Source: Lunularia cruciata
Taxonomy: Eukaryota > Streptophyta > Marchantiopsida > Lunulariales > Lunulariaceae
NCBI GenBank assembly: GCA_948567375.1
Contig: OX419756.1
Span: 36,718,333-36,782,332 of the forward strand
DNA length: 64,000 nucleotides
Reading direction: 5' to 3'
Part shown: piece after piece, positions 5,995 to 51,571 of the stretch
Layout: each line of letters starts with the position of its first letter
Position numbering within the stretch: the stretch's first letter is position 1
Program-made: the position numbers and the translations under genes
Notes under the pieces: model-generated
Database searches by the model: none
Seen by the model: only the letters and a program-made list of their open reading frames with translations
What the model was told of the DNA's origin: nothing

Positions 5995-6005
5995 GGGAGG
6001 GGGTA
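5993..6005 (+). other. G1 polypurine tract
   Basis: GAGGGAGGGGG plus TA lies between the integrase stop and the TGTGG start of the 3' LTR. This is the plus-strand primer site expected for an LTR retrotransposon. It fixes 6006 as the LTR start, and so shows that the long reading frame downstream lies in the LTR. Confidence 0.85.
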
Positions 6006-6752
6006 TGTGGTACCCACATTTTTTGTTTTTTTTCAAAATAAAGAAGAAGAAGTGTATAGAGAAGTCAGATTGCGCATGTATGGCCAAAGAAGGTGAAGAA
6101 AAGAGTCTTCGGGATGAAACCTGAAGTAAAGTGACTTTGGGTCATAAGGCAAAGTACTTGGAAATGCTCTGTCAACATACAACCCAAAGTATGGAATCCT
6201 CGTATCGGGGGGAGCTCAACCCGAGGTGAAGTCAGTCTAACAACCTTTCATTGGGGCGAGAAATTCAAGAAGGGACCGTTCAAAACCGGCGGCCCATACA
6301 CGTGAAGTATGATTGACAGTGACAAGCGCATGTAGGAGTTGTGATTTCTCGGTAGAAACTCAAATTGAAGAGAGACAAAGAAAGTGCAACTTTATAAAAT
6401 TGGGCTCGCAACAAAGCAATGTCGAGAAATTTTCCTTTGCCGTTGAGAAGTCGTCCTGTAGGTGATCGTGGGAAGGGAAATAGAGTTGAAGACATGCTAG
6501 TGTGTAAGGGAGAAGTCGAGAGAGTGACACCGAGAGACAATGAGAAAGCAGGAGAGATGTGAGGAGGAAAGAAGAACTCCGAGTTCACAATGAGGAATCA
6601 TGCAATTTGGAGGTTAGACGTAATCGCAAGAATCAAAGTCTTGAGCCGACTTTGGATTATGTTCTTGGCATGGAACGGGAATGTTAGTTTTCTAGGTTTC
6701 ATGACTGAGATCACCAAGAGCAAGTGTCTTGATGGGCCCAAGGAAGAAGGGA
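6006..6752 (+). repeat. G1 3' LTR, left part
   Basis: It starts TGTGGTACCCACA directly after the purine tract and matches the solo LTR from 30529. A TATA-like box (TTTATAAAAT, ~6391-6400) lies about 20-28 bases before the ATG at 6419. It breaks at 6752 where D1 inserted, and resumes at 16675 (GGGAAGAGAGG). Confidence 0.9.
6419..6752 (+). pseudogene. LTR-encoded coiled-coil protein of G1, N-terminal part
   Basis: This is the start of the same protein that is uninterrupted in solo LTR G2 (30943). The ATG at 6419 is followed by MSRNFPLPLRSR, and later MRNHAIWRLDVIARIKVLSR. A TGA interrupts it near 6558 and D1 splits it at 6752. The remainder is at 16675-17507. The function is unknown. Confidence 0.75.
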
Positions 6753-7414
6753 TGTCGTGCGTATATACATTGCTACACAACATACATTGTTGTCAACATC
6801 ATACACTATAAAAGCACAACTCACACATAAGTCATACATAGACTCTAAAGTGCCACAATAATCAGATTGCTTAACACTCTCAACTCAACTCAACTCAGAT
6901 CAGTACTTGATCTGTCACTCTATAAATTGCCAACAACTGGGCACTGATTACAGTCAAGCCACACCCACTCAAGCATAGAGAATCCAAGTGACGCTCGCCG
7001 GCCTCTGTCCACCATAGCCAGGAACTCGAAGGCTCAACATCAGAGAAGTGAGCTCTCTGGAGCTCACTTTGAAACTATACCCCCTGGACTCGAGCTAGCC
7101 CTGAAACCCTAACGGTCCCGCTGACGGCACACTCGACGGTGCAAACGGTGCAAAGTGACGGTGGGCCCCACCGTGAAGTCAGTACCCCAAACACAAAATC
7201 TAACCGTCGGAAAGTAGTCCTTGAGAAACTGCTAGAATAACTCTAACTACCATCACTGGAACTCTAGTGTCCGAGCATCTAGATGCGGAACTACAAATGG
7301 CGTGACAACTGTCGTGCGTATATACATCGCTACACAACATACATCGCTGTCAACATCATACACTATAAAAGCACAACTCACACATAAGTCATACATAGAC
7401 TCTAAAGTGCCACA
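6753..7414 (-). repeat. D1 3' LTR region with a duplicated 105-bp segment (R-LTR-R)
   Basis: The segment 6753-6857 recurs at 7310-7414, starting TGTCGTGCG and ending GTGCCACA with few differences. Between them, 6858-7307 matches the 5' LTR at 16224-16674. The second R copy is joined to the LTR by AC at 7308-7309, giving the near palindrome GTGACA-AC-TGTCG. The 5' LTR has no R copy. Which part is the true LTR is unclear: the outer end of R at 6753 is an insertion end, yet R also touches the purine tract. Confidence 0.7.
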
Positions 7415-7427
7415 ATCGCCCCCCTAG
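7415..7427 (-). other. D1 polypurine tract
   Basis: On the minus strand the sequence is AGGGGGGCGATT, just before TGTGGCAC of the inner R copy. It is the likely plus-strand primer site. Confidence 0.6.
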
Positions 7428-7583
7428 CTGGCGGTTAGGTCCCTCTAACTCCAGATAGCCATCTACTCTAAGTATATGGTATACCCTCTAATGGGCAAAG
7501 ATCAGGAGGCCGGGTGCTATGGAGCCCCATCGTAAGTCGCCTGTCTGCAATCTATACCATATAAAGAATGAACTAGCTATAGT

Positions 7584-8828
7584 TCAAGTACATCTAGGAC
7601 ATAACCACTGTCCCTGAGGAACCACCGTGAGGGGAGGAGTCATACATGCCATATGCCATCCTCTCGAACAACTATCACACACTAACATAGTAGCAGCTCC
7701 ACCAGAAGAGCCACATAACATACACCTCAAGCCTGCACGTACAAGTGCCAAGCTTGGGTCCATAGTACCATCAATGTTTGGAAGGTGGCATGGCGCACAA
7801 TTGCGCACATGATCCTTCCAAACAACACCATCACGTCCTTCTAACACAAGGACTCCAGATGGCAAAACCTCACGCACTCTCAAGATAGTGCGGCCTGTAG
7901 AAACATCAAGTGTCGTCGGTGCTGTTTGCTGTAGATATACATAGTCGCCTGGATGAAATCGATGGATCGAGGGTCTATAACCTCCTCCTCGAATGGTAGC
8001 ATAGCGTAAAGTATCTCTATGCTGAGCAATCGCCAAGTTCTCAAAGGCCATCGGCATCACTCTCCGAAAGATCTCTGCCCGTTGAGAACATGCGCTCATC
8101 CATACATTGGGGTCATCCAAGTCCAAAACTATAGTAGCATCTTGACGAATGGCTGCAGGTAAATCTGGATCTCGTCCATAGAGTAGGAAGTATGGAGAGA
8201 AGGATGCTAAGGAGGCTTGCCGGCTGAACCGATAGCCCATGGCCAACCAAGGTAATTGGAGATCCCAATCTCCCAAGTGGCCTCTCTACAAACCATACTT
8301 TCGCAATCCTCTCTTCACCGTCTGAACCACTCTCTCTGCTAAGCCATTTGCCTCAGGGTGATCTCGGGATGTAGTACGATGATCAATCAAAGCCTTGTCA
8401 CACAAGACCTGAAACTCTCCCAAGAACTCTGTACCCTGATCAGTCAAAACCTCAGCTGGTGCACCAAAATGACTAAGAACTCGATCCAGGAACGAGTAAG
8501 CTGTCCCTTCACTAGACTTGTCAGGAAGTGCCACCAACTCAATCCACTTAGAGAAGTGCTCCACCATCACCAAAACATACAGATGATGTCTCACAGTCAG
8601 CGGTAAAGGTCCGGCAAAGTCCAAACTCCAACGGTAACCCAATCCCATGATAGGTAATGGGTGTAACTGTGGCGTAGGAGCATTGAATGATACTCTAACT
8701 CGGTCACAAACCATACATCTGGCAACAAACTGCTGTACCTTGGTCTGCATACCGCGCCACCAATAATGACTCTAAAGTAAGCTATATGTACGCTTTACTC
8801 CAAAATGTCCTAGCTCCTCATGAGCATG
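7584..8828 (-). pseudogene. D1 integrase with C-terminal PHD finger
   Basis: Integrase inserts the DNA copy into the chromosome. The zinc-binding part begins HAHEELGHFG near 8828 and ends at CMVC (~8690). The catalytic residues are Asp in WSLDFAGPL (~8615), Asp in VLTDQGTEF (~8435) and Glu in DHPEANGLAE (~8360). A C-terminal domain follows, with HPGDYVYLQQ near 7950. The protein ends in a PHD zinc finger (7590-7724) where chromoviruses carry a chromodomain. Two in-frame TAG codons (8772-8774 and 8286-8288) interrupt it. Gln would fit at both, so these look like recent C-to-T changes. The end is a TGA at 7584. Confidence 0.88.
7590..7724 (-). other. PHD finger domain at the D1 integrase C-terminus
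   Basis: The spacing of zinc ligands is C-x2-C-x11-C-x2-C-x4-H-x2-C-x14-C-x2-C, exactly C4HC3. Trp stands two residues before the last Cys pair (QWLCPRC), as in canonical PHD fingers. PHD fingers are known to bind histone H3 tails. Here it could direct integration or particle components to particular chromatin, by analogy with the chromodomain of chromoviruses. All eight ligands are intact in this copy. Confidence 0.88.
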
Positions 8829-10697
8829 ACGGACCAACTGTGGTCTCTGTGATGGAAGTGGTACTACTCGCACTCTACCATCCTCCCATACACGCAAAAG
8901 GTATCTACCCTCCAATCTGAACCGTCTGGCTCGCTGAAGAATACGGTCTCTCTCCTTGGCCCCAACTGTGCCACCCACAACACCAGTGCGAAGATAGTCC
9001 ATCACTAAGACATCATCATGAATGTCTCGCTGAACTGTACCAATATCTTTACTCTCTGGATCTGTGACCACAATAACTCCTCTTGTATGCGCTAAGAGAG
9101 ATACCACCAAAGTCTCTGCAAATATACACAAAAAGGCCGATGCATGCCAACCTGGCACCATCTCCTCATCTGTCTCACCATGCCAACATGCTCCGGTCTG
9201 ATCCTGCTGGCTGGGACATGGGTTTCTACTCAACCCATTTGCATCACGGTTCACCACTCCAGGTCTGTGAACAACCGTGAAATCATACTCCTGTAAAATC
9301 AGAGCCCATCGTGTAAGCTTCCCTGAAAGCTTGTCGGACTCCATCAACCACTTCAGCGGCTGATGATCAGTGATGAGAGTGAAGGGGTTACCAAATAGGT
9401 AACATCGGAAATGTGCTCCTGCCCAAACTGCTGCCAAGCACTCTCCCTCATATGAACTATACTTCGCCTCCACTGAATTGTTGGAGCGACTAGCATAGGG
9501 CACCACAAACTCCTTCTCCTCATCATCATGCTGGGTGAGCACCGCTCCAAGCCCCAACATACTCCAATCAGTGTGAACCTGAAATGGTCGTCCCCTGATC
9601 GGTCTCCTCAAAATAGGAGCAGATGTCAACCTCTCCTTGAGCTCTACAAAAGCTCTCTCCTGCTCATCTCCCCAACACCACTCTTGTGTAAGCTTGGTCA
9701 GCTTTGTCAAGGCCTTGGCAATGGCACTAAATCCTCTAACATAGCGGCGATAGAAGTTTGCCAACCCAAGGAATGCTCGCACTCTACTCACATCCGTAGG
9801 CCGAGGAATACGTGCAATAGCCTCCACCTTGGTCTGCTGGACACCAAGTCCTCCGGGGTAGATTGTGTGACCCAAATACTCAACCTGCTTGTGGAAGAAC
9901 CTACACTTCCCAGGATGTAGTTTGAGTCCATGAGATCTCAACCTCTCAAACACCTCCAACAAATGTCGCTCATGCTCCTCCACAGTAGTGCTATACACCA
10001 AAATGTCATCAATATAGCACCGAGCAAAATCCAGTCCAGCTAGGATCCTATCCATGACCCTCTGGAACTCAGCAGGAGCATTCTTCAACCCAAATGGTAA
10101 GAATCTCCATTGATATAACACATCCTTGCCGTGAGGATCAATAGCCCAAAATGTTGTCTTGGACTTATCTTCCTCCCTGATCGGCAACTGATGATATCCC
10201 GCTCGAAGATCCAAAGTACTGAAGACCTTTGCATGCCCAATCGCATCAAAAATCTCCTCCGGTGTAGGCATGGCATACCGATCAGCCCTGGTCTGTCGGT
10301 TGATAGGACGGTAATCTCCACACATCTGCCTATCTGTATAGTTGCCATGCATATCCTTCTTGGCTGGCATCACTGTCGCTGATGCATACTCTCCATGTGA
10401 AATCTCGACCAAACCAGCCTCAAAAAGGTCACTACTCCGGCTCTGAATCAATGTCCTCTCCATCTCACTATATCGATAAGGACGTCGGAAAATAGGTGTG
10501 TCGCTAGTCAGCTCAATCTGTATACCAGGTCCCTTCAGAGCACCCAAATCCTTCATACTGAAGGCAAAACAACTCGTGTGACTCCTCAAGAACCTCCAAA
10601 CCCTCCGTCTTTCCTCTCCAATAAGCTTGGGTCCAAGATCTGGCTCCCAAGTATCCTCTGTAACTGTAGTAGGAGTGGAAGACGTACTGACTGGCTG
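8829..10697 (-). pseudogene. D1 reverse transcriptase and RNase H
   Basis: Except for the bounding TAGs at 10698 and 8772, this is one open stretch of about 600 codons. RT shows the ADRYAMPTPEEIFDAIG region, FLPFGLKNAPAEFQRVMD, and the YIDD active site at 10005-10016. RNase H includes FQVHTDWSMLGLGAVL (~9570) and TDHQPLKWLME (~9355). An RNase H-to-integrase linker lies near 9000-9250. It is in the same frame as the methyltransferase upstream and integrase downstream, so one polyprotein is expected. The YIDD and the AFLGLANFYRRYVRGFS motif are ordinary for Ty3/gypsy. Confidence 0.92.
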
Positions 10698-11024
10698 CTA
10701 TACTGGGCCCTTGGGAGCAATGGTGTCATGCTCCCGACCACTAGAGGTCCCAACCTCTGTGTGAAAAACTCCTTCCACTCTGGCTGCATCCCATGTGGAC
10801 CAAGGGTGTAATCCAAGTAGCCCACGCTCACCTGGATGGACTCCAAGTAGACCACTCTCCCTAGTAGCTACTGGATGTGTCCCAAGAATACCATGTCCAC
10901 TCGGTCCATTGCCCCCAGCATGTGCCTGAATCGTCTCAATAGGCACAGGGCTCACAAGCGTCCGAGTGGTGATGCCTATCAAGCGCATCCTACGTTGCTC
11001 TACCAAACCAAGGCTCACAATCCA
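10698..11024 (-). other. D1 spacer between methyltransferase and RT with G-x-L-G-x-H-P repeats
   Basis: This translated spacer, in the methyltransferase-RT frame, contains three imperfect repeats of the form G-(I/L)-L-G-x-H-P around 10800-10900 (GILGTHP, GLLGVHP, GLLGLHP). Its role is unknown. It ends at a TAG at 10698-10700, after which the RT frame continues. Confidence 0.6.
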
Positions 11025-12203
11025 GGTCAAACAGTTCAGGTCCATAGCTTGACCTAACACCTGACGCCTGGATGCCTCTGACACTGCTGGAACAGCGGTA
11101 ATACCGGTGTGAAAACCCATCGCCCGCTCTCTCTCATCAGCATTGGGCTCCACCAACTGCTGTAACTGTGAGTCCCAAACAAGTTCAGGTCCTCCCTCTC
11201 AAAAAGCATGAGAGCCTGGGAAACTCATGAGTGTGGGAAATGCAGCTCTAGGCTGTCCAACTAGGTTCACCACTGCCATAGATGACCTATCAACCACTAC
11301 CACTGTCTGAGACTGACGTTCAGCATCCAAGATATCATCAACAAGAATGTGGTCTAGTCGCTGAATCCCATCATAACTACGCTGTAGAACCTCTCTGGGT
11401 AAGAGGTTCGTCCACCAAAGACAAAGACGATGAGCCCGTGATCCCACTCTGGCTGCATCTAACAATACAGCAGGTCCCATCCATGAATGGACCTGATGTG
11501 TACTCGCCACCACTCTAGTGCGAGAATCACCCATCAATGGAATGTTCTCCAAAAGGTAAGCTAGAGAAACAGACTGATGAACCTGGAGATGTCGTAATAT
11601 CCGTAACATCTCCCAAAACACACCAGAACGAGGATCCTGAAGACCCAAACCACGGCCCGCACGTGTATGTCCCTGACATGGCCATCTAGAAATCACCAAG
11701 TGAACAGGCCCATGTCTCTCTAGGTCATGCGCCCCCAGTAAGGAAATGTCTCCTGGTAAGGCCTTCTGGTAACCTCTGACTGCTGACATCGGTAATAACT
11801 CCGGATACCGATAGGCCAAGTGTGCCACATGATGTAGAGAGACTCGCCTAGCAGTCTCATCTCTCTCTACATACAAGTACCTCTATACTCGGATACCCGC
11901 CTGTAACACCGCAGCTAGTCCGGTGCTGATCCCACCAAACAACTCCAATAGGCATATCCCCTCTACTGGATACTGCCAAGCAATGAGTGTGGTATCCAGA
12001 GGTGTCAAAGCAATTGCCTCTAGAGGCTCATCCTCACACTCATCCCCTGATGGTACGAAGGCTCCACTCCAAGCCTGTTGCACCAACTGATCTGCATGCT
12101 GCTGCAATGCCTCCTCTAAACTCCACAATGGAACATCCAAGGTGGATGGAACAATCCCACTCGTACTCCATAGCCGAGTGATCTCCTCTGGTACTGGAGT
12201 ATC
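11025..12203 (-). pseudogene. D1 cytosine-C5 DNA methyltransferase domain inside pol
   Basis: The motifs of a C5 methyltransferase occur in canonical order. Motif I: LLELFGGISTG (11951-11919), the S-adenosylmethionine site. Motif II: YVERD (~11873-11859). Motif IV: WPCQGHTRAGRG with the catalytic Cys at 11676-11678. Motif VI: LLENIP (Glu at 11547-11549). Motif VIII: VGSRAHRLCLWWTNL (~11447-11403). Motif X: RRQVLGQAMD (~11069-11040). The enzyme would methylate cytosine in DNA. Order I to X is not permuted, unlike plant DRM enzymes, and by eye motif VIII recalls DNMT3. TAG at 11883-11885 (between motifs I and II) and TGA at 11199-11201 interrupt the frame. The position between protease and RT, in the RT frame, is unusual. 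Confidence 0.88.
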
Positions 12204-12280
12204 CTATGCATGGGCGTTCCCCTCCAACAAGTCACCAGGCCAAGTGACTGCACCGCTGAAAGCCAAAACTGATGCTACTA

Positions 12281-13385
12281 TGGTCCTGGACTGTAGTGAG
12301 CCAAGACTGCCACTACTGAAACGTACTGGTAGACGACATACCGTCCCTCACCAGACTGCCAACCAGGTCTATAAGAGGCTGTCTCCTCCCAATAGTCAAT
12401 ACTGAAACCCATGGGGTATAACACTGCTCCCCCAACTAGCACATCATATGACTCAGCTATCGTCACAATAGCCTGAGCTCTCACTACCGAGCTATCAGTC
12501 GGATTACCAGGCTGAACCTGGACAACAAGCTCCCCACGTGTGATGTACTATGTCGAACCACCACCTAGAGATGTCTGGATCTGAAATGGACACCTCTCCA
12601 CATCGGTCTTCCGTAACTCCAGACCAACAACTGTAGCCTTCCCCAACATAAGGGGCTGCGCACCAGAGTCTAACAAGACTCTCTGTGGTGTATAGACCTT
12701 CCCTGAAGGTCCCACTAAATGAAAGATCCCCCTCTGGTTATCCAATAGGACAACACCAGGTGTAAACCGCACTCTCTCAAAGGCCGGTCTAGCTGGCAAC
12801 TCCTCCAGTCTAGCCGCTGTTGCCTGCCACAACCCACTGGTCGCTGAACAGATCCCATGCTCCTCAACCAAGTCAGCTCCACTACCAACCACCTCTGCTC
12901 TAGTAGTAGGAACTGCACCATCCCTACTCTCACACAACGTGGCAGCCAACCGGAACACTGGGGCTGGGTCAACTCCCAATGTAAACATGTCACTGGCTGA
13001 AAATAAAGGATGCCGCATAATCAGCTGAGCCGCCCCCAACATCATGCTAGACTCAGTCTGTGTAGTAGCAGGTGGCTGACTAGCAGGTACTCCATCAGGT
13101 ACTCCATCACCACCTACCACACCTGCACTGGGACGTCTAGGAACCATGGATGTCGTCTGCAATGCCTCAGATAGCGTGAAAGACTGGGGAAGTCTGACCT
13201 GTCTCCCAACCTCTCCTCTTTGTGGGTCCAACTCCACTGATGCTCCTCTAGGCTCTGGAGCACGTACTGCACTCCTAGTCACTGCTGCAGATGCATCCAC
13301 CTGTGCTGCTCCGCACATGAAGTCCAAAGCATCTCTATCACCAGCATATGAGGTGGAAGCCTCAGCACCCGAATCTGATCTCCTC
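12281..13385 (-). pseudogene. D1 aspartic protease region
   Basis: The protease active site reads VLLDSGAQPLMLGK near 12650, with the expected Asp-Ser-Gly. The C-terminal half continues past a TAG (12548-12550) to YDVLVGGAVLYPMGFSIDYW near 12420. The N-terminal ~190 residues are a long, low-conservation linker rich in Ala, Ser and Pro. It shares the gag frame. Near 12340 the homologous reading continues in the other frame, the one used by methyltransferase and RT. I see no obvious slippery heptamer there, so a one-base insertion or deletion is as likely as programmed frameshifting. Confidence 0.82.
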
Positions 13386-14959
13386 TAAGCAATAGCCATA
13401 CTAGCCAATCTCTGCTCCAACTGCTCAATCCGAGTAGCCATAACTGTGTCAGAAGTAAGGGCAGGTACCGCACCCCTACTAGGTGTAGATCCTCTACCAC
13501 CACCTCTACCACCTCGTCCTCCATGAATTGGAGCTCCTCTACTACCTGCCATAGCAGCCCTACCACTCCGTAACTCCGGGTGTAGGTCAAAACACCGGTC
13601 ACTAGTGTGACCAAATCTGTGGCAATGCTCACATTGCCTCTATGCTGGCTGTGATGCACCAGAGGTATCAGGTCCGCTGCCCTGAGTACACTCTCTCCTA
13701 TGGTGAGGTCCACCACAAGTCCAACAAGCAACACCACCACTCACTGGCTGCTGCTGACCCGAAAATGAGGGTAAGGGTCTAACTCCGCTAGGCCCTCCAC
13801 TCGCTCCATAGGATCTGGGCTGTCCACCCTGTCCTCGAAAACCAACTGGGCGTGGTGCACTCTGCTGCACTCTAGAAGAAGTCACAACCGTGGATGAGGT
13901 CTCTCTACCAAATCAAGCTGTCACCACTCTCTCCTCCACCATGTTGAGCTCAATACGCTCAGCCAAACCAAAGACTACTGCCAAAGTGGGCGAAGTAGCG
14001 TGCAACAACGTAGCATCACGAACTCTACGTCGCAACTCCCTGTCCAGTATCCCATACCAAAACTGGACTGCCTGGGCCTCAATAACTCCTTGAGTGAAAC
14101 TGATCAGCCGCCTCATGCGAGTGTATGCCTCGCGTAGGCTCTCTCCAGCCTTCCGTTGGAACTCCTGCAAGCTCCTCAGCTTGTCAGTCCGCACTCCCTG
14201 GTAGTTTTGCCTCAAACATAGGAAGAACTCAACTATGGGGTTAAACCCCGGTACCACACCACCTCCTGCAGCGGTACCTCCACTCATAGTAGCACTATCT
14301 CCAGCTAGTGCACCTCCACTAGCTCCACCCACACTACTTGAGCTAGAACTCGCAGGTATAGCCGATCTACTCCTGGCCACCGAGCCTGAAGTGATGGAGA
14401 CATAGTGTGGAGACCAATACTGTCTCCATAACTCAATCTCCTCCAAATGAGCTCTCCTGAACTCATGGTAGTCGTCCATCGGTGGACCCTCCAAGTGCTG
14501 AAACAACCCCTTCCATGCCATGAAGGGTGTGAACAAAGTCGGGTTCCGCATCTGCTACAGATCACACCAACTATCGAACTCCTGGATGAAGTCATCCAAC
14601 TCAATGGTACCCACTGTACCAGAGTAACGCCTAGGGCCTTTGGAGGCCCCATAAATCTCGTCCATGTCCCACAACAACGGTGCGGACACACCAAGTGCAC
14701 TCTCAACTGAATCAGCTCCTGTGTCGAGCTCCAACTCAGAGTCAATCTCCTCCCTCACTGGGACCTGAGATACAGGCTGATACCGAGCACCACTCCGAGT
14801 AAACCCACTGCGTACTGCAGAGCTAACTCCTCTGGAATCTCCAAAGAACTCCGTCGTGACAAAGTAACCACACCAACAAACCCAAACCACCAATTGCAAC
14901 AGCAAGTCGCAACCGCAAGTGCCCCACCAAGTGCCAACACCACCGCGTGCCAACACCAA
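13386..14959 (-). pseudogene. D1 gag with two zinc knuckles
   Basis: Gag forms the particle and binds element RNA. The capsid-like part spans roughly 14550-13950 and includes FRRAHLEEIELWRQYW and LRSLQEFQRKAGESLREAY, typical of plant gypsy gag. Two zinc knuckles follow: CWTCGGPHHRREC (~13720) and the canonical CEHCHRFGHTSDRC (~13630). After them come a Gly/Arg-rich stretch and a short coiled region (TRIEQLEQRLASM). Stops in frame: TAG at 14555, TGA at 13913, TAG at 13640 and TAG at 13386. The start is uncertain: the first in-frame Met region begins at 14959. Confidence 0.82.
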
Positions 14960-16223
14960 CTAAACACCACCCACTAATGTAACTCTAACCGAGATAACTA
15001 TACTAAAGGAAGGGCAACCTGTAACCTGCCATCATAACACGCACTCTCACGGTCTGCAGGTCATCACTTCCTGCCTCATCGGAGAGAAACAAAGGTAGTC
15101 TGACTGGTCATCACTCCAGCCTCACCACCGAGAGCACACCAGAGCACCAACGCTCAAAAGTCAAGGCACCTCACACAAACGTGGTGCACAAACAGGAAGC
15201 AAAGAATGGAGGGGATCCAATCACAAGAAATCTAAACAAAAACCCTCCATCTCATAACACAACACGGGACTGACTCTGCCACCATTTGGCATTTGACATA
15301 AGAGTAGTTCGTATCTAAGTCCTAAGCTACCAGGATCACCAAGAATGGGATCAAACTGCCTCTCCTAGCCAAAGCTACACGTGTATAGATAACAGTGGCA
15401 CAGTCACTATGACAACAAGTGAGGGTGGACCAATTGGCTAGGGCACCAGTCTAGGAACAAGAGATCTAGGGGTCAAACCCTGTTGCGCACAATCTAGCAA
15501 GAAAGGCAGATTTTGTCAACCAATGACCAAGATCTACACTAAACTAGCTAGCCTCACGCCAGCAAGTTGGCTTGCTGGCCCTTCTAGGCCTTCGTAGCCT
15601 CTCATAGCCCACAGCCCTATGCCTCGAAGCCTCAAAACGCTGAAATTCAGCCAAATGAGGCCTTTCTTGTTGCCACTTCGAACCTCCTCCAAAATTGGCG
15701 AAACTTCTCCAAACCTGCGAAACTCCTCCAAACTAGCAAAATTTCTCCAAATCTGGCCAAACAGCGAAACTCCTCCAATTCTGGCCCAAAAATCTGACAT
15801 AAAATCTGACGTAAAATTTGACATAAACCCTAAAGATGGATGTCCGCCAAATCCCCCGCTAACTTTCCACTCGAGCCAAATTGACAAAACGGGTTTTTCC
15901 AAATTACAATTTCATGAGAAGAGCTTTCCAACTCCACCTTCAATTTCACTTTCTGAGCCCAACTCGCAGCAAATTGGTCTTGCCTTCACCTCCTGAGCTC
16001 AAAATCACAACACTGCTCGAAAATTGCTCCTTCTTTGCTCGAAATTTGGCCAGCGCTTCCGCACACCGTCCGCCTAACTGCCAAATTTGCATCAACTACA
16101 CGAGCTTCTGCACACTAGGGAAACACAAAACCTGAATCGAGCTACCACGATCCACCGAGCTTGGAGATACCACCAACACTCAACGTTCCTGCACCCGATT
16201 TCCCCCTGACTTCACTTCTCTGA
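14960..16223 (-). other. D1 long 5' leader (~1.26 kb)
   Basis: It lies between the 5' LTR and gag, with no convincing coding sequence. It contains a tRNA-like stretch (15437-15490, plus strand) and, on the minus strand near 15276-15290, TGGTGGCAGAGTCAG. That resembles the initiator-Met primer site TGGTATCAGAGC and would imply a longer 1.4-kb LTR. The leader is collinear with D2 (41200-44000), so it belongs to the family. Confidence 0.6.
15437..15490 (+). other. tRNA-like sequence in the D1 leader
   Basis: TTGGCTAGGGCACC resembles a D-arm/A-box, and GGGGTCAAACCCT resembles a T-arm/B-box. The D2 copy at about 41915-41961 keeps the form, with GGGTTCAAACCCT. No full cloverleaf with a normal anticodon loop can be folded by eye, so this is not called a tRNA gene. 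It runs antisense to the element. Confidence 0.4.
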
Positions 16224-16674
16224 TGTAATCAGATTGCTTAACACTCTCAACTCAACTCAACTCAGATCAGTACTTGATCTGTCACTCTATAAAATGCCAA
16301 AAACTGGGCACTGATTACAGTCAAGCCACACCCACTCAAGCATAGAGAATCCAGGTGACGCTCGCCGGCCTCTGTCCACCATAGCCAGGAACTCGAAGGC
16401 TCAACATCAGAGAAATGAGCTCTCTGGAGCTCACTTTGAAACTATACCCCCTGGACTCGAGCTAGCCCTGAAACCCTAACGGTCCCGCTGACGGCACACT
16501 CGACGGTGCAAATGGTGCAAAGTGACGGTGGGCCCCACCGTGAAGTCAGTACCCCGAACACAAAATCTAACCGTCGGAAAGTAGTCCCTGAGAAACTGCT
16601 AGAATAACTCTAACTACCATCACTGGAACTCCAGTGTTCGAGCATCTAGATGCGGAACTACAAATGGCGTGACA
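16224..16674 (-). repeat. D1 5' LTR
   Basis: On the minus strand it starts TGTCACGCC and ends GATTACA. It matches 6858-7307 closely. The outer end abuts GGGAAGAG of the G1 LTR target. Confidence 0.78.
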
Positions 16675-17507
16675 GGGAAGAGAGGAAATCCGGCTTGCCG
16701 GATAGAGTCGGATTGGAGATTAGTACTCGGAAGAGAGGCAGGCACGAAGAAGGGTGCCACATTCTTGGGGAAGGGAGAGGTAGCCGAAGAAACTCAAGAA
16801 GTGAGGGATGCATTCTCTTCAAAGCGGATGAAGAACGGATACAAGGTTGAGAGTTACAAGGATCCAGTGAAGAGATCGATCGTGAGTGCTCTCATGGCCA
16901 TCTTGAAGCCAGAGAGAACGACGTATGTGATGAAACACCAAGCAGTGTTCTTTCACAAACTTTTTGCAGGAGAACCAATAAATTGGGCAAGGTGCTTCCA
17001 TGGGAGGATGCGACAAATGGTGTGGAATCTACGGGATAAGTTGCCTCCACATTACATTGTGCCATTTGCAGCACACTTTTACCTCGGGTTAAATTTGCTC
17101 AACTCGGCGGGGCAAACTCAAATGGTGTCGCATTTCCATCCCGACTTGAGAAGAGAAGTCGATATAGAGGAGCAACAGTATATTCTTCAAATCTGAAACA
17201 CAGACGAGTACTACAAGAAGACGGGGAAGAACGTGGAGATAGAAGCGAGTACTCCAAAATCAAAGTAGACAAAGTAGGAGTGCAGATGACTTCGGAGTTA
17301 GCAATAGAGATATTAGAGAAGAGTGGGTCAAGAGATAAGGAGTTAGATAGATTACCCACTTGTGCAATTTCAGATCAAGAAAGAGAATTGCTGGATCTGG
17401 TAGAAGAATTAGAAGTTGTGAAACCCGAGGACAGAGTAGTAAGAAGTAAATTTACTTTGGGTTCAAGTTTGAAAGCCGATGACGAAGTAGACATCGAATC
17501 GGACTAG
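16675..17507 (+). pseudogene. LTR-encoded protein of G1, middle and C-terminal remnants
   Basis: It continues the frame broken by D1: residues matching G2 from KRGNP through the conserved FHKLFAGEPINWARCFHGR block (~16956-17010) to YILQI, where a TGA falls at ~17195. After an internal deletion near 17265 only the last ~75 residues remain (17280-17507), ending in DEVDIESD and TAG. It is dead in this copy. Confidence 0.8.
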
Positions 17508-30665: not shown

Positions 30666-30913
30666 CATAAGGCGAAGTACTCTGAAATGCCGTGTCAGCA
30701 TACAATACGAAGTAAATTGTCTTCGGCTCAAGGGGAGCTCAACCCAAGGCAAATACAGTCTAACAACCTTTTGTCGGGGCGAGAAATTCAAGAAGGGGCC
30801 GTTTCAAAATTGGCAGCTCATACGTGCGAAGGTGGGGTGACAGTGACAGGTGCATGCCGGAGGTGTGATTTCTCGGTAGAAACTCGAAGTGACGGAAGAC
30901 AAAGAAGTGCGAC

Positions 30914-30923
30914 TCTATAAAAA
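30914..30923 (+). promoter_or_regulatory. TATA box of the G-family LTR
   Basis: CTATAAAAAT lies about 20-28 bases before the conserved ATG at 30943. The same box precedes the ATG in G1 (6391), G3 (minus, ~40160) and G4 (48171). Transcription would begin close to or at the ATG. Confidence 0.65.
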
Positions 30924-30942
30924 TCAAAACTGCAACAACAAA

Positions 30943-33252
30943 ATGTCAAGCAATTTCCCTTCGCCGTTGAGGAGTCGTCTTGCAGGTGATCGGGGAAAGG
31001 GAAATAGAGTTGGACTCGTGTTAGTGCATAAGGGAGAAGTCGAGAGAGAGAAATCGAGAGACCGAAAGAAAGCAGAAGAGATGGGAGGAGGGAAGAAGAA
31101 CTCCGAATTTGTAGTGAGAAATCATGCAATTCGGAGATTAGATATAGTAGCAAGGATCGAAGTCTTGAGCCGACTTTGGATCACTTTTCTGGCATGGAAC
31201 TGGAACGTAAGTTTTCCAAGATTCATGACAGAAATCATCGAGATTAAATGTCTTGATGGTCCCGAGGAAGAAGGGAAGAGAGGAAATCCGGCTCACTGGA
31301 CAGAGTCGGATTGGAGACTCGTACTCGAGAAGGAGGCATGCTCGGAGCAGGGAGTCACATTCTTGGAGAAAGGAAAGATAGCCCAAGAAACGCAGGAGGT
31401 GAGAGATGCCTTCTCGTCGAAGAGGACGAAGAATGGGTATAAAGTTGAGAGCTATAAAGACCCAGTGAGGAGAGGAATTGTGAGTGCACTAATGGCCCTC
31501 CTGAAGCAGGAGAGAACTACCTATGTGATGAAACACCAAGCGGTGTTCTTTCACAAGTTATTTGCAGGAGAACCGATAAATTGGGCAAGGTGCTTTCACG
31601 GAAGAACGAGGCAGATGGTGTGGAATCTGCGGGATAAGTCGCCTCCACACTACATCATACCATTTGCAGCCCATTTTTACCTCGGGTTAAATCTGCTCAA
31701 TCTAGCGGAGCGTAATCGAATGGTGTCTCATTTCCATCCTGATTTGAGAAGAGAAGTTGATGCGGAGGAGCAGCAATACATTCTCCAAATCCGGAGCACG
31801 GACGATTACTACGCAAAGATAGGGAAGAACGTGGAGGTCATTGAAAGTACCCCGACGAAGAAGAGAACTCGACAAGCAGAAGCCAAAGAAAACAAGAAAC
31901 CTCGGAAAATGCAGAAAAATAACCCAAGGCAAGGAATGGTGGTGATTGAGTCAGAAGATGAAGACTCAGAAGGCAAAGCCGAGCTCAAGACGGAGGACTC
32001 GGACCGTGAGGAGGAACCTGAGCTGACATTGCAAAGTGGAGATACAAGCAGTGACAGTGAGGAAGGAGGAGAGATGACATCGGTACCAGCGGCTGAAGAA
32101 TACAAAGAAGAAATGCAAGCCGAAGTAGAAACTGAAGACAATGCGGCATTGGAAGACAAAGTACTAGTGTGCAAGGAGAAGAAGATCGCAGTACAGCAAG
32201 GAATTCGCTCGAGATGTAAGGCGAAGTGTGAAGCGGGACTGAGTAAAGTGAAGGAAGAGGTAGAAGGAAGCTTGGGCAGTGAGGCATCGATTCCGATACA
32301 AAGACTCCAGAGAAGAAGGCGAGTATCGGGAGAACACGAGGAAAGAAGAGAGACCACTCCGCGGGAGGACAAAGTTGTCAGTAATGGAGTAGATTACCTG
32401 CAGATGGTAGTATGCCCGCTGTTGGTGAAGATGGAGAAGAAGAAGAAGGAGATGCAGTCTACTTGTCCAAAGGTAAAGACTATGTTGCAGGTCTTATCAA
32501 GATTGGAAGAAGAAAACTCGGAGTTGAAAAAGAGTATAACCCAAGGAAAGGAAGAGAGAGAAGTACTGCAAGCGGAAGCAATTGAGAGGAGTCAGGTAAT
32601 CAAAGACCTGAAGAGAGAAGTGAGTTATCGAGAAGATCTTGCGAGGAAGAGTGACATCGCAAGGGAGAGACAGGTAGCGGAGCATGAAATCTTGAAGCAG
32701 CAGTTTGCTGATTCAAGAGTCGAACTCATCCATGCTATGGCGGGGGTAGCATCGAAGGATCAAGAGCTCGATCGAGTGATAGAGAGTATGGAGGAGAAGA
32801 AGCAACTCTGGCAGCAAGAGTTGGCTGCAAGATATAGAGAAGAAGAGAGATTACGAGACTTACTTCGTAATCAGGAAGAGAAGGTTGCACAGAAGGAGAA
32901 AGAGAAGGAAGCAGTGAAGGTCAAATTCAAAGAAGAATTGGCAATGTACAGAGAAGAATGGCTCGCCGATCAGGAACGCGAACGCAAGACAAGATTGGAG
33001 CCATTGAAGGAAGTTGTCCTTAGAGTAAACGTGATGTTGAGTACAGAGGCCAGCGTTCGAATTGAGGAGACGAGATTGCACGAGTTAAAACTGTTGGTGC
33101 AGGAAACGAGGCAAAGACAAGCGAAAGATACAGATTTGAATGCCTTGTTGATTAAATTGAGAACTTGTGTAGATAGGAAGATCTTAGAAGTAGAAGACAA
33201 TATCGCGATTAGATTAGACTTAGTGAGAATAGAGTTAGAAAAGCTTCGATAG
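30943..33252 (+). CDS. LTR-encoded coiled-coil protein (769 aa), function unknown
   Basis: This is the longest open frame in the window. The ATG (MSSNFPSPLRSRLAG) is conserved in all four family copies, which decides the start. Residues ~1-280 look globular, with the conserved block FFHKLFAGEPINWARCFHGR and PPHYIIPFAAHFYLGLNLLN. Residues ~300-330 are basic (KKRTRQAEAKENKKPRK, nuclear-signal-like). Residues ~330-430 are very acidic. Residues ~495-769 form a long coiled coil rich in Glu, Lys, Arg and Leu. It ends at a TAG at 33250. In the same frame the homologous tail continues to 33516 (VDIGSD), so the ancestral protein was ~857 residues. I do not recognise the family. A gag-like or accessory role is a guess. 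Confidence 0.8.
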   Translation: MSSNFPSPLRSRLAGDRGKGNRVGLVLVHKGEVEREKSRDRKKAEEMGGGKKNSEFVVRNHAIRRLDIVARIEVLSRLWITFLAWNWNVSFPRFMTEIIEIKCLDGPEEEGKRGNPAHWTESDWRLVLEKEACSEQGVTFLEKGKIAQETQEVRDAFSSKRTKNGYKVESYKDPVRRGIVSALMALLKQERTTYVMKHQAVFFHKLFAGEPINWARCFHGRTRQMVWNLRDKSPPHYIIPFAAHFYLGLNLLNLAERNRMVSHFHPDLRREVDAEEQQYILQIRSTDDYYAKIGKNVEVIESTPTKKRTRQAEAKENKKPRKMQKNNPRQGMVVIESEDEDSEGKAELKTEDSDREEEPELTLQSGDTSSDSEEGGEMTSVPAAEEYKEEMQAEVETEDNAALEDKVLVCKEKKIAVQQGIRSRCKAKCEAGLSKVKEEVEGSLGSEASIPIQRLQRRRRVSGEHEERRETTPREDKVVSNGVDYLQMVVCPLLVKMEKKKKEMQSTCPKVKTMLQVLSRLEEENSELKKSITQGKEEREVLQAEAIERSQVIKDLKREVSYREDLARKSDIARERQVAEHEILKQQFADSRVELIHAMAGVASKDQELDRVIESMEEKKQLWQQELAARYREEERLRDLLRNQEEKVAQKEKEKEAVKVKFKEELAMYREEWLADQERERKTRLEPLKEVVLRVNVMLSTEASVRIEETRLHELKLLVQETRQRQAKDTDLNALLIKLRTCVDRKILEVEDNIAIRLDLVRIELEKLR

Positions 33253-39700: not shown

Positions 39701-40545
39701 ATCTCTCCCTTTCCCAAGAACGTGGCCCCTTGCTCCAAGCTTGCTTCCTTCCCGAGTAAGAGTCTCCAATCCGACTCTGTCCAGCGAGCCGGATTTCCTC
39801 TCTTCCCGTCTTCCTTGGGTCCATCGAGACACTTACTCTCGATGATTTCTGTCATGAAACATGGAAAGCTTACTTTCTAGTTCCACGCCAGAAACGTGAT
39901 CCAAAGTTAGCTCAAGACTTCAATCCTAGCTATTACATCTAACCTCCAAATCGCATGATTTCTCACTACAAATTCAAAGTTCTTCTTTCCTCCTCCCATC
40001 TCTTCTGCCTTCTCACTATCTCTCAATTTCACTCTCGTGACTTCTCCCTTACGCACTACCACGATTCCAACTCTATTTCCCTTCCCACGATCACTTGCAA
40101 GATGACTTCTCAATGGCAAAGGAAAATTACTCGACATTTTGTCATTGCGAGTTCAATTTTTATAGAGTTGCACTTCTTCGTCTTTCTTCAGTTTGAGTTT
40201 CTACCAAGAAATCACACCTCTTGCATGCACCTGTCACTGTCAACCAACCTTTGCGCGTATGGGCTGCCGGTTTTTGAACGGTCCCTTCTTGAATTTCTTG
40301 CCCCGACAAAAGGTTGTTAGATTGTCTTCGCCTCGGGTTCAGTTCCTCCCGATACGAAGACAATTTACTTTGGGTTGTATGCTAACAGGGCATTTCCGAG
40401 TACTTTGCCTTATGACCCAAAGTCACTTTACTTTGGATTTCATCCCGAAGACTCTTTTCTTTGCCTTCTTTTGCCATATAGGCGCAATCCAACTTCTCTA
40501 TACACTTCTTCTCCTTAATTTTGAAAAGAAAATGTGGGCAGCACA
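36787..40545 (-). mobile_element. Solo giant LTR G3 (3759 bp)
   Basis: It is the reverse complement of the G2 unit: it starts TGTGACAACCCGG and ends TGTGGGCAGCACA. It is flanked by CCATC on both sides (36782-36786 and 40546-40550). No internal region is attached, so it is a solo LTR. Confidence 0.92.
37580..40137 (-). pseudogene. LTR-encoded coiled-coil protein in G3 (frameshifted)
   Basis: The ATG at 40135-40137 (MSSNFPLPLRSHLASDRG) matches the G2 start. The conserved block FFHKLFVGEPINWARCFHGR lies near 39530 in a 274-codon open stretch (38856-39680). The coiled-coil part is broken into at least three frames around 38740, 38560 and 38240. The tail ends DDKVDIRLE at ~37580. It is inactive as a full-length gene, but the N-terminal half is largely open. 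Confidence 0.8.
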
Positions 40546-40655
40546 CCATCATACAACCAACTCCATTTTATGGAGATAAACCACACTAGTCTACTTTTTC
40601 ATGGGCTATGCAAACCACAACATGATAGTGTAGGCTCTTTCTAGCCTTCCACTAG

Positions 40656-41969
40656 AACTCTTGCAAGCTCCTCAGCTTGTCAGTCTACACTCCTTGGTAG
40701 TTTTGCTTCAAGCACTAGAAGAAATCCACCATAGGATTAAACCTTGGTACTACACTACCTCATGTAATAATACCTCCATTCGTAGTAGCACGCTCTCCAA
40801 CTAGTGCACCTCCACTAGATCCACCAATGCTACTAGAGCTAGAACTTATGGGTATTGCCAATCTACCCCTAGCAACCAAGCTTGAAGTGATGGAGATATA
40901 GCTCAAAGACCAATACTATCTTCATAGCTCAATCTCTTCTAGTGAGCTCTACTGAACTCACAATAGTCATCTATTGATGGACCCTCCAAGTGCTAAAACA
41001 ACCCGTTCCATGCAATGAAGGGTGTGAACAAAGTTGGGTTTCATATCGACTACAAATCACACCAACTATCAAACTCTTGGATGAAGTAATCTAACTCAAT
41101 GGTATCCACTATACCAAAGTAGCCCTTATGGTCTTTGGAGGTCCCATAAATCTCATCCTATCCCATAACAACAATACGGATACACCAAGTGCACTCTCAA
41201 TTGAATCAACTTTTATTTCAAACTCCAATTTAGAGTCAATCTCCTCGCTCATTGGGACATGAGATATAGGCTGATACCCAGTGCCACTTTGGGTGAACCC
41301 ACTACGTATTGTAGTGCTATCTCTTATGGAATCCTAAAGTACTTCACCGTGACAATGTAACTCAAATCACAATTGTAACCACCACAAGTACCCCACCAAG
41401 AACCACCACCAAGTGCCACCAATAAGAGCCAACACCAATTGAACATCACCCACTAATGTAACTCTAACTACAACAACCACAATAGGAGAAATGATGACTT
41501 GTAACTTGCTATCACAACACACACTTTCCTAGTCTATAGGTCATTATTTCCTACTTCACCAAAGAGAAATATAGGTAGTCCGACTGGTCATCACTCCAAC
41601 CTCACTACTAGGAGCAAACCAAAGCACTAATGCTCTAAAGTCAAGACACCTCACACAAACATAATGCAAAAATATGAAGTAGAGAATGGAAGGGGTCCAA
41701 TCACAAGAAGTCTAAAAAAAACTCTCTATCTCATAAATCAACACTGGGCTAACTCTACAACCATTTGGCATTTGATATAATAGGAATGTCTACTTACTTC
41801 CTAAGCTACCAAGATCACCAAGAATGAGATCAAACTATCTTTCCTAGCCAAAGCTACATGTGTACAAGTATCAATGGGATAGTTACTAGGACAACAAGTG
41901 AATTTGGACCCATTGGCTAGGGCATCAATCTAAGAACTAAAGATCTAGGGTTCAAACCCTGGTGTGTAC
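40656..41969 (-). pseudogene. D2: decayed relative of D1, gag fragment and leader
   Basis: It is collinear with D1 from about 14170 (gag capsid end) through 15490 (leader), but with many C-to-T and G-to-A differences and no open frame. It shares the tRNA-like stretch (about 41915-41961). It begins abruptly at ~40656, so protease, methyltransferase, RT and integrase are absent. It is interrupted at 41970 by solo LTR A2. Confidence 0.82.
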
Positions 41970-42409
41970 TATAACACCCATTTGTGCATGTGTGTGGTAT
42001 TGTGATATTTAGCTTGGTATTACAAGTACTTAAGAGATATTATTTATATAGAGATAAAGGATGGTTCTATATAAGTCATGGTTAGCTAAAGTTAGTCCTA
42101 GCTAAGATAGAGGAGACCTTACTTTAGAGGAAGTAGAAAAGATGAGCACCACTATTTTGAATTTTAGTGTGTTGACTTGGTATTATTCCTATAACACCCA
42201 TTTGTGCATGTGTGTGGTATTGTGATATTTAGCTTGGTATTACAAGTACTTAAGAGATATTATTTATATAGAGATAAAGGATGGTTCTATATTAGTCATG
42301 GTTAGCTAAAGTTAGTCCTAGCTAAGATAGAGGAGACCTTACTTTAGAGGAAGTAGAAAAGATGAGCACCACTATTTTGGATTTTAGTGTGTTGACTTGG
42401 TATTATTCC
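41970..42409 (+). repeat. 220-bp tandem duplication in solo LTR A2
   Basis: Two nearly identical 220-bp units, each beginning TATAACACCCATTTGTGC and ending GGTATTATTCC. The other A LTRs have one. Confidence 0.92.
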
Positions 42410-42882
42410 TAGGTGTTTGGCTTTGAGGAAAGAGTTGAGAAATCTTGGGCCCGCAAGCCTTTTTGTTTTGGGATTCTTCTTTAGTCCAAGGATAGGCCAT
42501 GTGAAGGAATCCTTGACTTAGTGGTTGGGTCAAGATAAGACCACATGCTTAGGGGAATATGCCCATGTGAATGGATACTCCTTTTTACTTTTTGACTTTA
42601 CTTGACAATTAGTCTAGTAACTTGAGTTACTACGGTAATTAGTAACTTTGGTATGTAACTATTTCACAAGTATATAAACAAGGGGTGAGGAGGTACTCAT
42701 CATCCTTTCATTTGCAACTATCTCTCTCTGATTGAGTTCTCTAGTGAGCAATGTCTTGAGTCTTGGAGTGTTAGCCTTGGAGGAGTATGATGGAGTTGGG
42801 ATTCCTTGCCTTCTTAGTCCATGGTGCGCTACCATAATAGCCATCAGAGGTTCATCCTGAGTGAGAGACAGGCCGGCTCACA
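41970..42882 (+). mobile_element. Solo LTR A2 (913 bp) with internal tandem duplication
   Basis: It starts TATAACACCC and ends GGCCGGCTCACA, and matches the A1 LTRs. GTAC flanks both sides (41966-41969 and 42883-42886). The first 220 bp are present twice in tandem (41970-42189 and 42190-42409). Without the extra unit it is 693 bp, the family length. Confidence 0.9.
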
Positions 42883-44120
42883 GTACAATCTGGAAGGGTG
42901 GGCAAAATTTACCCAAAAAATCATCTAAACTAGCTAGCCTCATGCCAACAAGCTGGCTTGCTTGCCTTCATAGCCTCTAAATGCTAGATGAAGCCTTTCT
43001 TCTTGCCAATTCAAACCCTCTCCAAATTTGGCCAAGCTTCACCTAACTCAAGCCAAGCTTTACCTATCTTGAGCCAAATCTATGGCAATTTGGATGACCT
43101 CTAAATATAGGCAACCTCCATCAAATTTGGCCCAACTTGAGCCAAATCTAGGGCAATTTGGATGACCATCAAATCTAGGCAAACTCCACCAAATTTGACA
43201 TAACTCCTCCGCCAAATTTGATGCAAGTCTGACATAACTCCTCTATAGTTGGTTGATCACTAAGTCCTCCACTAAATCTCCACTTGAGCCAAATTGGAAG
43301 GATAGAGATCTCCAAATCACTAATTTGAGTAGATGGGTTCCCAACTCCGGCTTCAATTTTGAACTTCAAGCTCAACTCACATCAAATTAAATCAACCTGA
43401 TTTCACCTCTTGGGCTCAAATTGAATACCCATTATCTCAAATCGACTCCATTCCCAAAAATTTAGCCACTGCTTTTGCACACCATATGCCCCACTACAAA
43501 ATCTACATCAAATTGCACAAAGCTTCTACACTTGATCACTCTTAGGGAAATCTAAATCATGATCAAAGTACCAACAATCAGTCAAGCTTGGTGATATCAC
43601 CAACACCCTTAGTTTGTGCATCCAATTTCCTCCTAACTCTCACTTCTTTGATGTAATCAATTCTTCTTCAACACAAATCACACTCAAATCAAATAGGTAC
43701 TCTATTCCTCACTCAACAATCTACTAACAATTGTGTATTAATTACAGTCAGACAACATCCACTCCCAACTACGTTACTTGAGACTACCAACCACGTACTA
43801 AGAGACTCCAAGTGATGCTTGTTGGCCTCTATCCACCATAACTAGAAACTTGAAGGCTCAACACTAGAGAAGTAAACTCTCTAGATCTGCCCTTTGAAGT
43901 TATACCCCTCTGCTTGACCTATTTTTTTAACCATTGACAACACATCCAATAGTGCAAATGGTGCAAGTGATAATGGGTCCCACCATGTGATCAATAGCTC
44001 TAACATGAAATCAGACCATCAACAAGTAGTCCATGAGTGAGTACCAAAATACCTATGACTACCAACACTACCACTCCAACATCCAACCAAACTAGCCTCG
44101 GTGCTACAAATGTCATGACT
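42883..44120 (-). repeat. D2 leader and 5' LTR remnant
   Basis: It continues D2 after the A2 insertion and is collinear with D1 15485-16674. The LTR part is about 43652-44120 and ends CAAATGTCATGAC, matching CAAATGGCGTGACA of D1. Like D1, this 5' LTR has no 105-bp R segment. Confidence 0.75.
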
Positions 44121-50700: not shown

Positions 50701-51571
50701 GAAAAAGTAGTAGGAAGTAAAGTTACTTTGGGTTTGGGTTGGAAAGCCGATGACAAAGTAGACATTGGATCGGATTAGTAACAGTTTTGAGATTTGAAGA
50801 GGCAGATATGAAGAGTTGCATTGTCATTTTGGATCTGCAGGTTAGAAAAGTTGTTATAGAACGATATAGTTGTTAGAACTGTCAATTTGTTCACTACTTA
50901 AGAGTGGTATTCGCAGTATCATGTTGTTCAATGCTCATAATTTCTGAGAATAGATAAAGCAAAGTGTTGTGAAGCAATGCTTGTCGCTTGAGCTTGATTC
51001 CGAGTATCAACGTTGTACTTGTGTTTGTGAGTGTGTGAAGAAATTTGAAGTGCAAGTTAGTGTGCTTGTTGGATGTTGGATTCCGCAGCCTTGATCTTCA
51101 TTCTGTGTGTTTGATCCTAAGTGAACTGCAATCAAAGCAATGCCTTGACAGATCTGAGAGGAATTGTAGTGTTGGTAGTATTCTGTATTTGTGAGTGCAG
51201 TGCGAGGTTGATGTGAAGCAATTTTGATCGAGGAAGTTGTGCCTTTAGTGGAGGGGTGGAACACAATTCTGAGGCAAAGTTGTTTTGCAGTGAAGTGCCG
51301 TTTTTGGGAGAGCCTGAATCATCACAATCAAGATTGTTTGGAAAGATTTGATGGAGTTGTGATTAAGGAATGTTAATTTTTGACAAGACTACAAGTTAGT
51401 GCTTGTTACTCTCTTCTAGGTGTGGTTTCTACCTGAGAGATTAAAGATGCAACCAAGAAGAACTGAAGTTGTTACTTTGCTTTGTATTTGGAAATTTCTG
51501 ACTTGTATCTCTGTGGGAACAAACTTTACTTACCCGATTACCGCAAAAGTGATATTTGCCGGGTTGTCACA
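47783..51571 (+). mobile_element. Solo giant LTR G4 (3789 bp)
   Basis: It starts TGTGGTGCCCACA and ends GGTTGTCACA, with AGAAT on both sides (47778-47782 and 51572-51576). The 3' LTR of C1 has the uninterrupted site TTGAGAGAATGCTCTG at about 60076-60091. This is direct proof of insertion. Confidence 0.95.
48198..50778 (+). pseudogene. LTR-encoded coiled-coil protein in G4 (broken)
   Basis: The ATG at 48198 starts MSSNF but shifts frame within ten codons. The conserved middle is open at 48617-49291 (FFHKLFAGEPINWARCFHGR near 48798). Stops then fall at ~49289, 49448, 49750, 50076, 50299 and 50380. The tail (50392-50778) is open and ends DDKVDIGSD. Compared with G2 it is the older or more damaged copy. 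Confidence 0.82.

What the first reader, a model, noticed from the sequence alone, without database searches (positions are those of the whole stretch)
11025..12203. Cytosine-C5 DNA methyltransferase domain inside the pol of a Ty3/gypsy element
Seen: motifs I, II, IV (catalytic Cys), VI, VIII and X in canonical order, lying between protease and RT and in the RT frame. Known: C5 methyltransferases captured by retrotransposons have, to my recollection, been reported in dinoflagellates and charophyte algae, but this is not a standard land-plant element feature. Inference: the element may have written methylation on its own copies, on competitors, or on target chromatin. The domain is unpermuted, so it is not a plain copy of a plant DRM gene.
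Basis: partly seen in the sequence, partly recalled or inferred. Interest (0 to 1): 0.93.

Follow-up and report, generated by a model that had tools for sequence, protein, structure and literature searches.

The report
Retrotransposon carrying a DNA methyltransferase
A decayed jumping gene in this probably moss- or liverwort-like genome carries its own enzyme of the kind that adds methyl marks to DNA; similar elements turn up in liverworts, mosses and green algae, and one like it had been described in a single alga.

Summary
On the minus strand, 11007-11963 encodes a complete, unpermuted C5 cytosine methyltransferase domain between protease and reverse transcriptase of a Ty3/gypsy-type element (6753-16674). 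This copy is dead: two stops lie inside the domain and a frame change lies before it. It is no one-off. The domain, whole or in part, occurs at 7 loci of one Marchantia polymorpha annotation and in M. paleacea, Calypogeia, Sphagnum, Closterium, Chlamydomonas eustigma and unnamed environmental contigs. Family profile and a relative's predicted fold both put DNMT3A/3B first. All retroelement copies in the tree form one clade; two domain orders (before RT, or between RNase H and integrase) split once in both the DNMT and RT trees. The closest known element, KnitGypsy-Dnmt3 of Klebsormidium, is described with the same enzyme class and repeat arrangement. So this is a new member of a known kind, extended into land plants. 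Most likely role: de novo methylation of the element's own free cDNA. This is inferred; no activity was tested.

The parts
16226..16674 (-). A1: 5' terminal repeat (starts TG)
   Evidence: 440/449 identical to A2 at 6859-7307; followed directly by leader, no B
14960..16225 (-). 5' leader
   Evidence: runs on from A1 without a B segment in this copy and in copy 2
13913..14959 (-). gag region, in two open pieces (weak PF03732, E 0.026, below cut-off)
   Evidence: relatives P0121, P0124 hold gag, PR and DNMT in one protein
12548..13384 (-). protease region (LLDSGAQ at 12656-12676); other frame than DNMT; no Pfam hit
12204..12547 (-). protease-DNMT linker where the frame changes
   Evidence: words of the relatives' linker are read in another frame
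11007..11963 (-). DNMT3-type C5 cytosine methyltransferase domain, with two in-frame stops
10698..10700 (-). stop between DNMT tail and RT, 36 residues after HPW; possibly the natural end of the Gag-Pro-DNMT frame
   Evidence: 7 of 18 relatives that end after DNMT keep HPW and end 38-45 residues after it
8775..10697 (-). reverse transcriptase and RNase H (and start of integrase zinc domain)
   Evidence: PF00078 2e-32, PF17917 8.3e-34
8286..8771 (-). integrase core, DDE type (rve)
   Evidence: PF00665 1.6e-14
7587..8285 (-). integrase C-terminal part ending in a PHD finger (7590-7724)
   Evidence: PF00628 1.5e-11
7310..7416 (-). B1: internal copy of repeat B
   Evidence: 97% identical to B2
6859..7307 (-). 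A2: internal copy of repeat A, joined to B1 by two bases (GT)
6753..6859 (-). B2: 3' terminal repeat (ends CA); GGGA duplicated at the insertion site
   Evidence: sister empty site 48505-48550
40630..44119 (-). second, older related element (gag 40630-41972, A1 43674-44119), no DNMT found

Best explanation
A decayed copy of a Gypsy-type retrotransposon lineage that captured a DNMT3-type de novo cytosine methyltransferase, most simply once and long ago, and kept it in bryophytes and green algae. SHOWN from sequence: domain identity, unpermuted order, DNMT3-like predicted fold of a close relative, kept catalytic residues in relatives, recurrence in many hosts, DNMT and RT trees that agree on the split between domain orders, A-coding-B-A-B termini, DDE integrase with a 4-bp target duplication, PHD-tailed integrase. 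INFERRED mechanism: the enzyme is made as the tail of Gag-Pro (or, in other branches, inside Pol), so it travels in the particle and methylates the element's own free double-stranded cDNA before integration. The B1-GT-A2 junction is a copy of the two element ends joined, so the cDNA may pass through a circle. Methylated cDNA would look like host DNA and be quiet at first. The PHD finger, of a type that I recall as reading the unmodified H3 tail, would tether the integrase to chromatin. My confidence: identity about 0.95, one capture about 0.8, cDNA as the main target about 0.4. The number below is for the whole.
Against: KnitGypsy-Dnmt3, the nearest published enzyme, gave no detectable methylation in yeast; the authors call that inconclusive. 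No activity, expression or methylome data here. dN/dS could not be computed (no DNA of relatives); the identity means above rest on different sets of pairs. The residue before the catalytic Cys is Glu in 17, Ser in 3 and Gly in 1 of 78 rows instead of Pro. DNMT3A joins a viral-contig protein on long branches in a quick tree, so the root is unsure, and no green-plant host DNMT3 was in it. Gag-Pro placement is not uniform: 8 Marchantia or Sphagnum gene models join DNMT to RT or integrase. Why a transposon gains from methylating itself is unexplained.
Confidence: 0.6

Rival explanations
1. The enzyme acts on chromatin at or around the target site (or on host or competitor DNA) after integration, steered by the PHD-tailed integrase, rather than on free cDNA. 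PHD plus DNMT would rebuild in one element the ADD-plus-methyltransferase pairing of host DNMT3.
For: PHD finger on the integrase tail of the window and of 41 of 224 relatives by similarity to it; closest solved PHDs include CHD4, PHF12, KMT2D, KDM5, PHF21A and ATXR5; the residue two before the His is Gly in 31 of 35 pattern-matched fingers and never Trp, which I recall as the mark of fingers that do not read H3K4me3.
Against: 18 bryophyte-type proteins end after or within DNMT, 7 of them with a complete tail, so joint delivery with integrase is not given, though 8 gene models join them. The PHD reading preference is recalled knowledge, not tested. The model of the integrase tail was poor (pTM 0.35).
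Confidence: 0.25
2. Host benefit or self-restraint: the enzyme speeds silencing of new copies and so limits damage to the host.
For: Proposed as one option in PMC5890265 (section read); the window element is CpG-depleted (obs/exp 0.49).
Against: CpG depletion is weaker than in the window as a whole (0.36), so no special methylation of this family is visible.
Confidence: 0.15
3. Defence of the host cell against DNA viruses by a transposon-borne methylase.
For: Proposed in PMC6338049 (one part of the text read).
Against: That paper ties it to a loss of such transposons in land plants because large DNA viruses are absent there; bryophytes keep them. No direct evidence.
Confidence: 0.05
4. Two or more independent captures of DNMT3-type enzymes, one per domain order, rather than one capture and one move.
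For: Two domain orders exist; no host DNMT3 from green plants was in the tree.
Against: All 79 retroelement DNMT rows form one clade away from one DNMT3A fragment and six viral/phage enzymes (98), and the RT tree shows the same split; P0083, DNMT before RT, sits near the other class in both trees (support 80 and 92).
Confidence: 0.2

Closest known systems
KnitGypsy-Dnmt3 of Klebsormidium nitens (PMC5890265)
   Same: Gypsy-type element; unpermuted Dnmt3-type enzyme in the Pol ORF; key residues kept; repeats of DIRS arrangement with Gypsy domains (section and Fig. 4 legend)
   Different: Host is here probably a bryophyte, not an alga. The word PHD does not occur in that main text. Its sequence and domain order were not available (figure not held, supplements not readable), so direct kinship is untested; two Klebsormidium RTs do fall inside the PHD-tailed lineage.
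SymbioDIRS-Dnmt3 (PMC5890265)
   Same: Dnmt3-type enzyme; A-coding-B-A-B repeats (legend seen); two domain orders coexist there too
   Different: Tyrosine recombinase there; DDE integrase and 4-bp target duplication here. The authors see no relation between the Gypsy and the Symbiodinium elements.
SymbioLINE-Dnmt (PMC5890265)
   Same: Retroelement-borne C5 methyltransferase
   Different: LINE, enzyme in the upstream ORF, not in the Dnmt3 group by that text.
Host DNMT3A/DNMT3B
   Same: Nearest fold and profile
   Different: About 19-26% identity; a stretch between motifs I and IV that DNMT3A lacks; sits in a retroelement; no ADD or PWWP hit among the nine pieces scanned.
Gypsy elements with an AlkB m6A demethylase in Phalaenopsis (PMC9289625, abstract and outline seen)
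   Same: Plant Gypsy element that captured an epigenetic-type enzyme
   Different: RNA demethylase in an additional ORF, unrelated enzyme.

Membership tests
C5 cytosine methyltransferase (PF00145) | Motifs I, IV (Cys), VI (ENV), VIII, X in order | tested here: met
   Pfam just above cut-off on one piece
DNMT3 class | Closer to DNMT3A/3B than to DNMT1, DNMT2 or bacterial enzymes | tested here: met
   (family profile and fold of a relative, not of the broken window copy)
DNMT3 class | Groups with eukaryotic host DNMT3 in a full tree | tested here: inconclusive
   Only one DNMT3A fragment as reference; long branches
DRM (plant rearranged) | Permuted motif order | tested here: not met
   Order I to X unpermuted
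Ty3/gypsy | Gag, PR, RT, RH, INT in this order | tested here: met
   gag only weakly by Pfam, PR by motif and relatives
Ty3/gypsy with standard LTRs | Identical direct LTRs at both ends | tested here: not met
   A1 ... B1-A2-B2; 5' end lacks B in two copies
DIRS/PAT (tyrosine recombinase) elements | A-coding-B-A-B split repeats | tested here: met
   B-A-B end seen in one copy only
DIRS/PAT (tyrosine recombinase) elements | Tyrosine recombinase, no target duplication (the latter recalled) | tested here: not met
   rve integrase; no PF00589 among 9 pieces at E up to 1; GGGA duplicated
KnitGypsy-Dnmt3 kind | Gypsy domains + unpermuted Dnmt3-type enzyme + DIRS-type repeats | tested here: met
   against text and legend
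KnitGypsy-Dnmt3 kind | Sequence kinship with the K. nitens enzyme | not testable with these tools
   No protein named K. nitens with a DNMT among the listed hits (one search lists 120 of 983); supplements not available
KnitGypsy-Dnmt3 kind | Purifying selection (Ka/Ks) on the domain | not testable with these tools
   No DNA of relatives; only protein-level conservation
Chromovirus | Chromodomain at integrase C-terminus | tested here: not met
   PHD finger there instead; no chromodomain hit at E up to 1

The most novel reading that the evidence does not exclude
Capture of DNA methyltransferases by retroelements goes with A-coding-B-A-B termini, whatever the integrase: DIRS with DAM, SymbioDIRS with Dnmt3, and this Gypsy lineage with Dnmt3 (SymbioLINE-Dnmt is an exception). 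These termini imply a circular, free double-stranded cDNA, and the captured enzyme marks that circle as self before integration. In the green lineage one such capture is old enough to span green algae and bryophytes, moved once within the element, and would give a liverwort whose published list holds only MET, CMT and DRM (PMC5784723, passages seen) its only unpermuted DNMT3-type enzyme.
Probability: 0.25. Interest if true: 0.85.

Novelty: new member of a known kind. Interest (0 to 1): 0.6.

Why it matters
It moves methyltransferase-carrying Gypsy elements from one published alga into land plants. [quoted passage not shown] With copies at several loci of the model plant Marchantia polymorpha, the question why a transposon carries an enzyme of the kind that silences it becomes open to experiment. 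The shared repeat arrangement gives a concrete hypothesis (circular cDNA as substrate).

Tried and rejected
Own genome: the genome search with PF00145 was tried 13 times and never answered, so copy number in the window's genome and host identity are open. Viral contigs: 59 loci came back for the DNMT profile (best-segment identity 24-53%); I took them from the match table as ordinary viral or phage C5 enzymes, did not inspect them for retroelement genes, and used six as tree outgroup. Phage tblastn: 325 records, all under 60% identity, not pursued as a source. DRM origin: rejected, unpermuted. One-off insertion or assembly artefact: rejected, many independent relatives. Plain LTR element with a deletion: rejected, because copy 2 also runs from A1 straight into the leader; its 3' end is missing, so B1-A2-B2 is seen once. 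Structure of the integrase tail: pTM 0.35, not used. The viral structure library gave C5 enzymes with mostly large rmsd and added nothing. Rfam on the window at gathering scores: no hit. dN/dS: not possible without DNA of relatives. Literature: the ten searches listed no paper on such elements in bryophytes that I could recognise from titles and abstract starts; only open-licence papers are held, so this is no proof of absence. In PMC6317226 (passages) neither 'PHD' nor 'methyltransferase' nor 'Marchantia' occurs in the main text. In PMC12344493 (passages) DNMT3 in retrotransposons is mentioned for streptophytes and dinoflagellates; 'bryophyte' does not occur in it. Passages of PMC6453930 and PMC9985172 added nothing.

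Full report
What was checked. The minus strand of 11025-12203 was read in open pieces. Pfam DNA_methylase hits the middle piece just above its cut-off (E 6.9e-5, 22.9 bits against 22); the two outer pieces gave nothing alone. A profile from five relatives finds one DNMT domain in the 64 kb, at 11007-11963, covering positions 2-320 of 321. Motifs I, IV, VI, VIII and X follow in canonical order. The copy is broken: stops at 11883-11885 and 11199-11201, one more at 12204-12206, a frame change between protease and DNMT in 12204-12547, and a change at one well kept motif VIII position.

The element. In coding order (minus strand): A1 16674-16226, leader, gag, protease, DNMT, RT-RNase H, integrase, PHD finger, B1 7416-7310, GT, A2 7307-6859, B2 6859-6753. 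A1 and A2 agree at 440 of 449 bases, B1 and B2 at 97%. Ends are TG and CA and the insertion site GGGA is duplicated, as seen against a sister copy of the interrupted repeat at 48505-48550. The 5' end has A but no B. A second, older element in the window (40630-44119) also runs from A straight into the leader, so this is not a private deletion; its 3' end is missing, so the B-A-B end is seen in one copy. A-coding-B-A-B is the arrangement named for SymbioDIRS (legend), and the KnitGypsy legend says its repeats are those of a DIRS element with Gypsy domains. The B1-GT-A2 junction equals the two element ends joined; that it templates a circle is inference from DIRS logic, not shown.

Relatives. 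Three protein searches gave 224 listed proteins; 109 hold at least part of the DNMT domain by the family profile, 84 of them over 200 or more columns. Two of the three searches were seeded with the DNMT, so this is not a frequency. Named hosts with DNMT: Marchantia polymorpha (7 loci in the Mp_ annotation: Mp_1g20900, 2g26090, 4g09160, 6g11220, 7g09570, 8g15430, 8g17980, some with part of the domain only; further MARPO_ and AXG93_ models may be the same loci), M. paleacea, Calypogeia fissa, Sphagnum troendelagicum and S. fallax, Closterium, Chlamydomonas eustigma. RT relatives also name Riccia and Klebsormidium. The window DNMT falls in a 15-row set with Marchantia, Calypogeia, Sphagnum and three unnamed rows (SH-aLRT 96) and its RT with Marchantia and Calypogeia (98). 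The host of the window is therefore probably a bryophyte; this was not confirmed.

Two domain orders. DNMT lies before RT in window, bryophytes, Closterium and P0083; it lies between RNase H and integrase in another class. In the DNMT tree of 86 rows all 79 retroelement rows form one clade (98) and the second class is one side of a branch (95); 40 rows have no known order. In the RT tree of 58 rows the second class is again one clade (99), and P0083 lies near it in both trees. The simplest reading is one capture and one move. Both are quick trees with SH-aLRT only; the root rests on long branches, and no green-plant host DNMT3 was available.

Position in the reading frames. Of 18 bryophyte-type proteins that end after or within DNMT, 7 keep the HPW motif of the tail, and they end 38-45 residues after it; the window's stop at 10698-10700 comes 36 residues after the same motif. 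So that stop may be natural and DNMT may close the Gag-Pro frame. Against this, 8 Marchantia or Sphagnum models, and Closterium proteins and P0083, run DNMT and RT or integrase together; models from large genomes may be spliced in silico.

PHD finger. PF00628 at 1.5e-11. Nearest solved fingers include CHD4, PHF12, KMT2D, KDM5, PHF21A and ATXR5. Of 35 sequences matching a PHD pattern among 225, 31 have Gly, 3 Ala and 1 Pro, and none Trp, two residues before the His. That this slot holds Trp in H3K4me3 readers is recalled. The main text of PMC5890265 does not contain 'PHD'.

How it may work. Shown: an enzyme with kept catalytic residues exists in relatives. Inferred: it is packaged and methylates free cDNA, possibly a circle, before integration; PHD steers integration. 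Published activity exists for SymbioDIRS enzymes, not for KnitGypsy. Rivals are listed with their tests.

Novelty. The kind is known. New here, as far as ten searches of an open-licence library show (listed under Tried and rejected): its presence in bryophytes as a recurring family, the PHD tail, two domain orders with agreeing trees, and the A-B-A-B termini in a land-plant-type copy.

Noticed in passing
40630-44119: Second, about 64-79% similar element of the same lineage, with other repeats between 41972 and 42925 and cut off at 40630; CpG obs/exp over this span 0.14, so probably much older than the finding's element.
   Followed up: partly
30880-33252 and copies at 36787-40545, 47783-51571: Abundant repeat family with a 790-aa open frame of charged residues; the finding's element sits inside a copy of it (6004-6752 | 16674-17272).
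   Followed up: no
L001 (IMG/VR contig, 6001-6831): A viral-contig C5 methyltransferase that groups with DNMT3A rather than with five other viral/phage enzymes in the quick tree (support 90, long branches).
   Followed up: no
P0148, C-terminal part after the PHD finger: Relative with RH-DNMT-INT-PHD order carries a further C-terminal part after the PHD finger, with an SPPV motif that could belong to another methyltransferase-like domain.
   Followed up: no
relatives: Residue before the catalytic Cys is Glu in 17 and Ser in 3 of 78 relatives instead of Pro; unusual for C5 methyltransferases (recalled).
   Followed up: no
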